Below are positions 33,931 through 37,247 of a stretch of DNA of 64,000 bases, one piece after another. Location of the stretch: positions 87,992 to 151,991 of the forward strand of contig CAMFII010000011.1 of NCBI GenBank assembly GCA_945952585.1. The letters run 5' to 3'. The translations under genes were made by a program, and so were the position numbers. The stretch is from an uncultured Rhodobacter sp. Its GTDB lineage: Bacteria > Pseudomonadota > Alphaproteobacteria > Rhodobacterales > Rhodobacteraceae. The notes beneath the pieces are model-generated. The model saw nothing but the letters and a program-made list of their open reading frames with translations, ran no database searches and was not told the DNA's origin. Within the stretch, counting starts at the first letter, position 1, and every line of letters begins with the position of its first letter.

Positions 33931-33985
33931 CGTGTCGCCTGTCTCTTTCTCATCCGATGAATTGTTGACAAATTCGCTCGGATTA

Positions 33986-34002
33986 TTTAGAACCATTCCA
34001 GA
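33986..34002. promoter_or_regulatory. Irr/ICE-like box TTTAGAA-CCA-TTCCAGA upstream of iscR
   Basis: Matches TTTAGAA-N3-TTCTAAA with 2 mismatches; preceded by TTGACA at 33965-33970. Confidence 0.6.
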
Positions 34003-34083: not shown

Positions 34084-34542
34084 ATGAAACTCTCGACCAA
34101 GGGACGTTACGCGATGATGGCGCTGGCCGATCTGGCGCTGGCCCGGCCTGACGACCTCGTGTCGCTGGCGGCGATTTCCAAGCGTCAGGACATCTCGCTT
34201 CCGTATCTCGAGCAGCTCTTCGTGAAGCTGCGCAGGGCGGGTCTGGTCGAGGCAGCGCGGGGGCCGGGCGGTGGCTACAAGCTGGCGCGCACGCCCGAGG
34301 ACATCCGGGTGTCCGAGGTGCTGGAGGCGGTCGACGAGACGGTCAGCGCGCTCCATACCGGGGCGGGGGCCACGGGCGGCGTCTCGGGCACGCGGGCGCA
34401 GTCGATGACAAACCGGCTGTGGGAAGGGCTGTCGGCGCATGTCTATGTCTTCCTGCACCAGACGACGCTGGCGGACGTGATCGGTAACGGCATGAAACCC
34501 TGCCCGGCGGTGCCGGCGCTGTTCGCGGTGGTGGACGAGTAA
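34084..34542 (+). CDS. iscR: Rrf2 family transcriptional regulator IscR
   Basis: MKLSTKGRYAMMALADLAL, ISLPYLEQLFVKLRRAGLVEAARGPGGGYKLAR; first gene of suf cluster. Confidence 0.92.
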   Translation: MKLSTKGRYAMMALADLALARPDDLVSLAAISKRQDISLPYLEQLFVKLRRAGLVEAARGPGGGYKLARTPEDIRVSEVLEAVDETVSALHTGAGATGGVSGTRAQSMTNRLWEGLSAHVYVFLHQTTLADVIGNGMKPCPAVPALFAVVDE

Positions 34543-34611: not shown

Positions 34612-35679
34612 ATGAGCATGGGGTCGGGCATGTCATCCCGCGTCTATCTCGACTGGAACGCGACGACGCCGCTGCGCCCCGAGGCGCGGGCGGCGATGGT
34701 CGCGGCGATGGATGTAGTGGGCAATCCCTCGTCCGTGCATGCCGAGGGCCGGGCGGCCAAGGGGCTGATGGAGCGGGCCCGGGCGCAGGTGGCGGCGGCG
34801 CTTGGCGCCGAGGGGGCGGACATCGTCTTCGTCTCGGGCGCGACCGAGGCGGCGGCTTTGGCCTGCGCCGGGCGGGGCCTCGTCTGTGCCGATGTCGAGC
34901 ATGAGGCGGTCAGCGCTTGGTGCGATCCGCGTCTGGCCGTGGATCGGGAGGGCCGGGTAGAGGTGATCGCTGCCGCTGGAACCGCGCTGCAACTGGCGAA
35001 CTCCGAAACCGGGGTGATCCAGGACCTGCCCGAGGGGATTGCGGTCAGCGACCTGACGCAGGCCTTCGGCAAGATTCCCTTCGCCTTCAACTGGCTGGGC
35101 TGCGCCATGGGATTCGTCTCGGCGCACAAACTGGGCGGCCCGAAGGGCATTGGCGCCCTGGTGATCCGGCGTGGCCTTGACGTGGCTTCGCAACTGAAGG
35201 GCGGCGGGCAGGAGATGGGGCGACGCGCGGGCACAGAGAACCTGATCGGCATCGCCGGATTCGGCGCGGCGGCCGAAGCGGCGGCGCGCGATCTGGCCGA
35301 CGGCGTCTGGGAGCCGGTCGAGCAATTTAGAAATATTCTAGATGACGCATTGTCGGCTCCGGAATTTAGGACTATTTCAGTCGGAAAAGGCGCGCGGCGC
35401 CTGCCCAATACGCTTTGCCTCGTCACGCCCGGCTGGAAGGGCGAGACGCAGGTGATGCAGATGGACCTGGCCGGCTTCGCGGTTTCTGCCGGATCGGCCT
35501 GTTCCTCGGGCAAGGTGCGCGCCAGCCGGGTGCTGCGGGCGATGGGATATGACGAGACCGAGGCTTCCTCGGCGTTGCGCATCTCTCTGGGTCCGGAGGT
35601 GACGGAGGCCGAGGTGATGCGCTTTGCCGAAACCTGGCGCGCAGCCTGGCGGCGGTTCGAGGCGCGGCGAGCGTCGTGA
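34612..35679 (+). CDS. cysteine desulfurase (NifS/IscS-like)
   Basis: [29 protein letters not shown] (PLP Lys), [16 protein letters not shown] (Cys loop). Confidence 0.9.
35326..35342. promoter_or_regulatory. Irr/ICE-like box TTTAGAA-ATA-TTCTAGA inside cysteine desulfurase CDS
   Basis: 1 mismatch from TTTAGAA-N3-TTCTAAA; second weaker copy TTTAGGACTATTTCAGT at 35365-35381. Confidence 0.55.
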
Positions 35680-35729: not shown

Positions 35730-37247
35730 ATGGGCGCGCTCGAAACCGAAGTGCAGGCCGACCTGAGGGAAGGCGTCGATCGCGAGACGATCGAGACGGT
35801 CAAGGCGATGTCCGGGACCTACAAATACGGCTGGGACACCGAGATCGAGACCGAATATGCGCCGAAGGGCGTGAACGAGGACATCGTCCGTCTCATCAGC
35901 CAGAAGAACGGCGAACCGGACTGGATGCTCGACTGGCGTCTGGCCGCCTATCGCCGGTGGGTGCAGATGGAAGAGCCGCGTTGGGCGATGCTCAACTATC
36001 CCGAGATCGACTACCAGGACCAGTATTACTACGCCAAGCCCAAGAGCATGGCCACGAAGCCGAAGAGCCTGGACGAGGTCGATCCGAAGCTGCTCGCCAC
36101 CTACGAAAAGCTCGGTATCCCGCTGAAGGAACAGATGATTTTGGCGGGCGTCGAGGGCAGTGAGACGCGCAAGGTCGCGGTCGATGCGGTGTTCGATAGT
36201 GTTTCGGTCGGGACGACCTTCAAGGAAGAGCTGAAGAAGGCCGGCGTGATCTTCTGCGCCATTTCCGAGGCGATCCGGGAATATCCCGACCTCGTGAAGA
36301 AGTATCTCGGCTCGGTCGTGCCGCAGTCGGACAACTTCTTTGCGACGCTGAACTCGGCGGTCTTTTCGGACGGCTCCTTCGTCTACATCCCCGAGGGCGT
36401 GCGCTGCCCGATGGAGCTGTCGACCTATTTCCGCATCAATGCCGAGAATACCGGTCAGTTCGAGCGGACGCTCATCATCGCCGACAAGGGGTCCTATGTC
36501 AGCTACCTCGAAGGCTGCACGGCGCCGAAGCGCGACACCCACCAACTGCATGCGGCGGTGGTCGAGATCGTCATTCTGGACGATGCCGAGGTGAAGTATT
36601 CGACCGTCCAGAACTGGTATCCGGGCGATGCCGAGGGCAGGGGCGGGATTTACAACTTCGTCACCAAGCGCGCCGATTGCCGGGGGGCGCGGTCGAAGGT
36701 GATGTGGACGCAGGTCGAGACGGGGTCGGCGATCACCTGGAAATATCCCTCCTGCATCCTGCGGGGCGAGGAAGCCCAAGGCGAATTCTATTCGATCGCG
36801 ATCGCCAACAATGCCCAGCAGGCCGATACCGGCACCAAGATGGTGCACCTCGGCAAGAACACCAAGTCGCGCATCGTCTCCAAGGGGATCAGCGCAGGCC
36901 GGGCGCAGAACACCTATCGCGGGCTCGTCTCGATGCACCCGCGCGCCAGCGGCAGCCGCAACTACACCCAGTGCGACAGCCTGCTGATCGGCGACAAATG
37001 CGGGGCGCATACCGTTCCCTATATCGAGGTCAAGAACAACTCCTCGCGCTGCGAGCATGAGGCGACGACCTCGAAGGTGGACGAGGACCAGCTGTTCTAC
37101 TGCCGCTCGCGCGGCATGGACGAGGAACAGGCGGTGGCGCTGGTGGTGAACGGCTTCGTCAAGGATGTGCTCCAGACGCTGCCGATGGAGTTTGCCATGG
37201 AAGCGCAGGCGCTGGTGGCAATCAGCCTGGAAGGCTCGGTCGGCTGA
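35730..37247 (+). CDS. sufB: Fe-S cluster assembly protein SufB
   Basis: [68 protein letters not shown]. Confidence 0.96.

What the first reader, a model, noticed from the sequence alone, without database searches (positions are those of the whole stretch)
35326..35381. Irr/ICE-like boxes written into the coding sequence of the suf cysteine desulfurase
TTTAGAAATATTCTAGA (35326-35342) is one mismatch from the TTTAGAA-N3-TTCTAAA dyad; 39 bp on is a weaker copy TTTAGGACTATTTCAGT (35365-35381). The codons used here (TTT AGA AAT ATT CTA GAT ... TTG ... TTT AGG ACT ATT TCA) look very atypical against the surrounding GC-rich codons. This suggests the DNA is constrained as a binding site while still encoding [23 protein letters not shown] dual-use site could drive an internal iron-regulated promoter for sufBCD, or act as a downstream roadblock or looping partner with the iscR-promoter box.
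Basis: partly seen in the sequence, partly recalled or inferred. Interest (0 to 1): 0.75.

Follow-up and report, generated by a model that had tools for sequence, protein, structure and literature searches.

The report
Iron-control promoter hidden inside iscS gene
Inside a gene for making iron-sulfur clusters sits a short stretch of DNA that also works as a switch (binding sites for two iron-sensing proteins plus a start point for reading the next genes); this switch was already shown by experiment in a related bacterium, and here it is found kept almost letter for letter across most of the family.

Summary
TTTAGAAATATTCTAGA (35326-35342) is one mismatch from the ICE dyad and one of only three such sites (two mismatches or fewer) in the 3.9 Mb genome; the others are the iscR promoter and mbfA. 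It is the orthologue of a published element: promoter P3 inside R. sphaeroides iscS (Nie, Remes and Klug 2019, PMC6956336). There an identical box (TTAGAAATATTCTAGA) lies about 50 nt upstream of a dRNA-seq start site and its fragment binds Irr in EMSA; an IscR site (GACTATTTCTGTCGG) lies at the start. So the "weaker second copy" is not a second ICE box (5 of 14 mismatches, chance level) but the -10/start region with an IscR box, GACTATTTCAGTCGG (35370-35384).

New here: in 187 Rhodobacteraceae iscS genes the Irr box is kept (two mismatches or fewer) in 166 and exact in 150. Spacing to the IscR block is fixed at 44 bp (154/154). The two blocks are the gene's strongest peaks of synonymous conservation; AGA/CTA codons, about 1% elsewhere, reach about 90% here. 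The composite was absent from about 390 other Alphaproteobacteria. Roadblock or looping is not needed. In R. sphaeroides P3 alone showed no net iron response in wild type, so "iron-regulated promoter" needs care.

The parts
35326..35342 (+). Irr box / iron control element (ICE), palindromic, inside iscS codons 239-244; centred at about -50 of the inferred P3 start site
   Evidence: identical core to the R. sphaeroides P3 Irr box TTAGAAATATTCTAGA in an EMSA-positive fragment; kept with <=2 mismatches in 166/187 orthologues
35350..35355 (+). inferred -35 element TTGTCG of internal promoter P3
   Evidence: TTG at about -34 as reported for R. sphaeroides P3; TTG at this position or 1 bp on in 122 of 154 orthologues. 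A generic sigma-70 consensus scan found no promoter here
35370..35384 (+). IscR box GACTATTTCAGTCGG covering the -10 region to the inferred start site; the second reported 'copy' overlaps it
   Evidence: one mismatch to the R. sphaeroides site GACTATTTCTGTCGG in an EMSA-positive fragment; block at codons 254-258 within 3 mismatches of its consensus in 169/187 orthologues and at fixed spacing
35384..35384 (+). inferred transcription start of P3, by homology (A 35374 = -10, TTG 35350 = -34)
   Evidence: inference applied to the window sequence
34612..35679 (+). iscS, NifS/IscS-type cysteine desulfurase, host gene of the element
   Evidence: ORF; NCBIfam NifS/IscS hits below the equivalog cut-offs; PDB relatives
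34084..34542 (+). iscR, Rrf2-family regulator, first gene of the operon
   Evidence: TIGR02010 141.8 bits, under its cut-off; TIGR00738 over its cut-off
33966..34002 (+). iscR promoter P2 elements: IscR-type site within TTGACAAATTCGCTCGG (33966-33982) and second Irr box TTTAGAACCATTCCAGA (33986-34002)
   Evidence: conserved in relatives; in R. sphaeroides Irr did not bind the corresponding promoter fragment
35730..37247 (+). sufB, first gene downstream of the internal promoter (leader of about 345 nt)
   Evidence: ORF; distance read

Best explanation
The stretch 35326-35384 is the orthologue of the R. sphaeroides isc-suf internal promoter P3, written into the coding sequence of iscS. Irr binds the palindrome at 35326-35342, just upstream of the -35 element. 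RNA polymerase uses a TTG -35 element (35350) and a -10 region around 35374 to start near 35384, giving extra suf transcripts without iscR and iscS. IscR binds GACTATTTCAGTCGG over the -10/start region and represses. Irr restrains the promoter under low iron, and IscR restrains it in both iron states. Selection on the binding sites holds otherwise rare codons fixed. Shown here: the sequence elements, fixed geometry and synonymous constraint, and presence of irr and iscR in this genome. Shown elsewhere (R. sphaeroides): start site, promoter activity, Irr and IscR binding. Inferred: that the same happens in this organism.
For: Irr box core identical to, and IscR box one mismatch from, the sites in EMSA-positive fragments of R. 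sphaeroides P3; TTG at -34, A at -10 and box at about -50 all fit one start site at about 35384. Irr box kept in 166/187 orthologues, exact in 150, spacing to the IscR block 44 bp in 154/154. The two strongest 7-codon peaks of synonymous conservation in the gene are codons 238-244 and 253-259. Third-position identity 0.92 in the box, 0.78 in the block, 0.34 between, 0.48 in the rest, at median protein identity 71%. AGA/CTA about 1% elsewhere, about 90% here. Rigid composite in 181/298 Rhodobacteraceae genomes (nearly all from different genera), reversed-pattern control 0. The genome encodes Irr, over the NF045678/NF045677 cut-offs. Its third box lies just upstream of mbfA, a proven Irr target in R. 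sphaeroides.
Against: No expression or binding data exist for this organism. A generic sigma-70 scan found no promoter, although R. sphaeroides P3 is itself described only by a TTG and an A. About a fifth of the orthologues with both blocks (32 of 154) lack a TTG at the expected -35 place, most of these having CTG instead. The likeness of the P3 block to the IscR site of the iscR promoter is moderate (r = 0.64, permutation p = 0.012). 21 orthologues lost the box, most of them with irr still present. In R. sphaeroides the effects of Irr and IscR on P3 are only 2-3 fold.
Confidence: 0.9

Rival explanations
1. The box is a roadblock or a looping partner: Irr bound inside iscS stops transcription coming from the iscR promoter, or bridges to the iscR-promoter Irr box.
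For: Two Irr-like boxes lie 1.34 kb apart in one operon and both are conserved in relatives.
Against: A mapped promoter with the same geometry exists at the orthologous site. Irr did not bind the iscR-promoter fragment in R. sphaeroides. The conserved 44 bp geometry links the box to a local promoter, not to a distant site.
Confidence: 0.05
2. The conservation is at protein level: the residues [FLIV]-R-N-I-L-[DE] and T-I-x-V-G are needed by the enzyme and the codons follow.
For: Arg 240 and the hydrophobic pattern remain in orthologues that lost the box.
Against: Synonymous choice itself is fixed: AGA and CTA are about 1% elsewhere and about 90% here, while orthologues without the box mostly use CGC, CTG and Asp at 241. 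The first base of codon 239, outside the palindrome core, varies freely (TTT, CTT, ATT, GTT).
Confidence: 0.02
3. Two tandem ICE boxes (35326 and 35365) bind Irr cooperatively.
For: The second stretch has a TTTAG left half in this species.
Against: 5 of 14 mismatches, at chance level; the left half is not conserved in relatives; the conserved part matches an IscR site in the R. sphaeroides orthologue.
Confidence: 0.03

Closest known systems
R. sphaeroides isc-suf promoter P3 inside iscS (Nie, Remes and Klug 2019, PMC6956336)
   Same: Same gene, identical Irr box core, IscR box with one base different, same -34 TTG, -10 A and about -50 box position; upstream of the suf genes.
   Different: Other species; no experimental data here. 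The held main text describes gene-order conservation but I found no mention of conservation of P3 itself or of codon constraint; supplements were not readable.
Irr box / iron control element (ICE) of Alphaproteobacteria, e.g. mbfA and ccpA in R. sphaeroides (PMC3413700)
   Same: Same palindrome and regulator family; the ccpA start site lies about 40 nt downstream of its box, a similar distance.
   Different: Those boxes are described in upstream promoter regions; this one lies inside an open reading frame and is held there by codon choice.
IscR site at the iscR promoter (P2)
   Same: Consensus GACGAATTCGCTCGG of P2 lines up with GACTATTTTTGTCGG of P3.
   Different: Order is reversed: at P2 IscR site upstream then Irr box, at P3 Irr box upstream then IscR site; the P3 sequence is also coding.

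Membership tests
Irr box / ICE | Palindrome near TTTAGAA-N3-TTCTAAA | tested here: met
   1 mismatch; 150/187 orthologues match TTAGAA-N3-TTCTAGA exactly
Irr box / ICE | Irr regulator encoded in the genome | tested here: met
   L201 1435-1866, over NF045678 and NF045677 cut-offs
Irr box / ICE | Box retained only where Irr exists | tested here: inconclusive
   Good genomes: 0/14 without Irr versus 164/249 with Irr carry the composite (Fisher p 6e-7), but only about 4 changes of Irr on the tree and 2 independent pairs, so relatedness is not excluded
Irr box / ICE | Irr binds the site | not testable with these tools
   Shown by EMSA only for the R. sphaeroides orthologue
R. sphaeroides iscS-internal promoter P3 | Irr box about 50 nt, TTG about 34 nt and A 10 nt upstream of the start, in iscS upstream of sufB | tested here: met
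   Coordinates 35334, 35350 and 35374 fit a start at 35384
R. sphaeroides iscS-internal promoter P3 | Transcription starts there | not testable with these tools
   No RNA data for this organism
IscR site of Rhodobacteraceae | Sequence like the P3 IscR site GACTATTTCTGTCGG and the P2 site | tested here: met
   GACTATTTCAGTCGG at 35370-35384, one mismatch to the published P3 site; P2-P3 motif r = 0.64, p = 0.012
IscR site of Rhodobacteraceae | IscR binds the site | not testable with these tools
   Shown by EMSA only for the R. sphaeroides P3 fragment

The most novel reading that the evidence does not exclude
A composite Irr-IscR promoter fixed inside a coding sequence is a general feature of Rhodobacteraceae rather than a quirk of R. 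sphaeroides, and the DNA site has shaped the enzyme: position 241 is almost always Asn with the box (149/166) but mostly Asp where the box is lost (17/21).
Probability: 0.6. Interest if true: 0.5.

Novelty: new member of a known kind. Interest (0 to 1): 0.38.

Why it matters
It turns a single-species result into a family-wide rule and gives a clean case of a transcription-factor site held inside a bacterial gene by codon choice. The roughly 15 changes of box state counted on the gene tree, many with the IscR/-10 block kept, make a natural test of what Irr adds to this promoter.

Tried and rejected
Second ICE copy: rejected, chance-level match and unconserved left half. Pure protein constraint: rejected by codon usage. 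Roadblock or looping: no support found. Irr presence explaining box presence: raw association strong (0/14 versus 164/249), but the tree test had only 2 independent pairs on supported branches, so not claimed. Most box losses keep irr, so loss of Irr is not the usual cause. A P3-block PWM scan over iscR promoters gave few strong hits; the anchored motif comparison was more informative. A generic promoter scan found nothing. A literature search for ICE returned mostly unrelated papers, and searches for later reports on P3 or on bacterial coding-region sites found none that report this in their listed titles and abstracts.

Full report
Observation. The reported dyad is exact: TTTAGAAATATTCTAGA at 35326-35342, one mismatch from TTTAGAA-N3-TTCTAAA. 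The window has two sites at 3 mismatches or fewer where shuffles give 0.15. The whole 3.9 Mb genome has three at 2 mismatches or fewer: the iscR promoter, this site, and one 12 bp upstream of a gene that scores 560 bits with the NCBIfam model of MbfA, the membrane ferritin whose promoter Irr binds in R. sphaeroides (PMC3413700). The second reported copy, TTTAGGACTATTTCAGT, has 5 of 14 mismatches; at that level the plus strand of the window has 12 sites and a Markov model gives 18. It is not a second ICE box.

What is already known. Nie, Remes and Klug 2019 (PMC6956336) mapped promoter P3 inside R. sphaeroides iscS by dRNA-seq and reporter fusions. They name a putative Irr site TTAGAAATATTCTAGA about 50 nt upstream of the start, a TTG near -34, an A at -10, and an IscR-like motif GACTATTTCTGTCGG at the start, and show Irr and IscR binding to the fragment by EMSA. 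P3 was the strongest sense promoter. IscR represses it 2.5-2.8 fold in both iron states. In wild type P3 alone had no significant iron response; without Irr it rose 2-fold in low iron. Irr bound P3 but not the iscR promoter fragment (also PMC3413700). The window carries the same elements: box core identical, TTG at 35350, A at 35374, GACTATTTCAGTCGG at 35370-35384, all consistent with a start at 35384. The second "copy" is therefore the -10/start region with the IscR box.

Conservation (new here). iscS was taken from the window and related genomes and reduced to 187 distinct sequences, with median pairwise protein identity of 71% among those with the box. Measured against TTAGAA-N3-TTCTAGA at the homologous codons, 150 match exactly and 166 within 2 mismatches. 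The downstream block matches ACTATTTTTGTCGG within 3 mismatches in 169. Where both are present the start-to-start distance is 44 bp in 154 of 154. These sequences were chosen among the closer relatives of the window, so the rates are not family averages. A less biased scan with a rigid composite pattern found it in 181 of 298 Rhodobacteraceae genomes, nearly all from different genera, with none for the reversed control. The exact composite was in 0 of about 390 Alphaproteobacteria outside the family, and in 2 of the 5 family members in that sample.

Constraint is on DNA. Comparing codon identity with what codon usage predicts, the highest 7-codon windows of the gene are 238-244 and 253-259. 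Third-position identity is 0.92 in the box, 0.78 in the block, 0.34 between them and 0.48 elsewhere. AGA is 1.2% of Arg codons elsewhere and 89% at codon 240; CTA is 1.2% of Leu codons elsewhere and 91% at codon 243. The first base of codon 239, outside the palindrome core, varies freely (F, L, I, V) while its last two bases are fixed. The -35 TTG sits at the same place or 1 bp on in 122 of 154; 25 have CTG near it.

Losses. 21 of the 187 lack the Irr box; 15 of these keep the downstream block within 3 mismatches. They mostly use CGC and CTG, with Asp at codon 241 in 17 of 21, against Asn in 149 of 166 with the box. A parsimony count on a gene tree gives 15 changes of box state. Irr is missing, judged by no match stronger than 1e-40, in 19 of 298 genomes. 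Among good-quality genomes, 0 of 14 without Irr and 164 of 249 with Irr carry the composite (Fisher p 6e-7). Two Irr-less genomes have a box one or two changes from consensus, as in decay (L205, L212), and two incomplete ones (G172, G214) have it intact. Only about 4 changes of Irr and 2 independent pairs were available, so this association cannot be separated from relatedness. Most losers still encode Irr.

IscR motif. At iscR promoters, sequence anchored on the Irr box gives TTGAC.AATTC..TCGG upstream of it; its best alignment to the P3 region pairs GACGAATTCGCTCGG with GACTATTTTTGTCGG (r = 0.64; permutation p = 0.012). This supports, moderately, that the P3 block is an IscR site; the published EMSA is the stronger evidence. 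The order of sites is reversed between the two promoters.

Verdict. That promoter is known in R. sphaeroides; this is its orthologue. The added value is the family-wide, codon-level conservation and the pattern of losses. Literature coverage was limited to open-licence papers, supplements could not be read, and I cannot exclude an earlier report of this conservation.

Noticed in passing
window 33966-34002: iscR promoter has an IscR-type site (TTGACAAATTCGCTCGG) followed by an Irr-like box; an Irr-like box within 2 mismatches of TTAGAA-N3-TTCTAAA is present upstream of iscR in 151 of 179 relatives although Irr did not bind this promoter in R. sphaeroides EMSA. What keeps it conserved is unclear.
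   Followed up: partly
L001 1501-1517 (own genome C2:90962-90978): Third Irr box of the genome, 12 bp upstream of an mbfA gene read on the opposite strand.
   Followed up: yes
L093 and L104 (Paracoccus): Both lack an Irr orthologue, the iscS Irr box and an adjacent iscR, yet L093 keeps ACCATTTTTGTCGG, close to the downstream block.
   Followed up: partly
G187 C1 and C67: One genome carries two iscS copies, each with an intact composite element.
   Followed up: no
L064: A contig labelled Sphingomonadales MAG carries a Rhodobacteraceae-like iscR-iscS (65% identity); possible misbinning.
   Followed up: no
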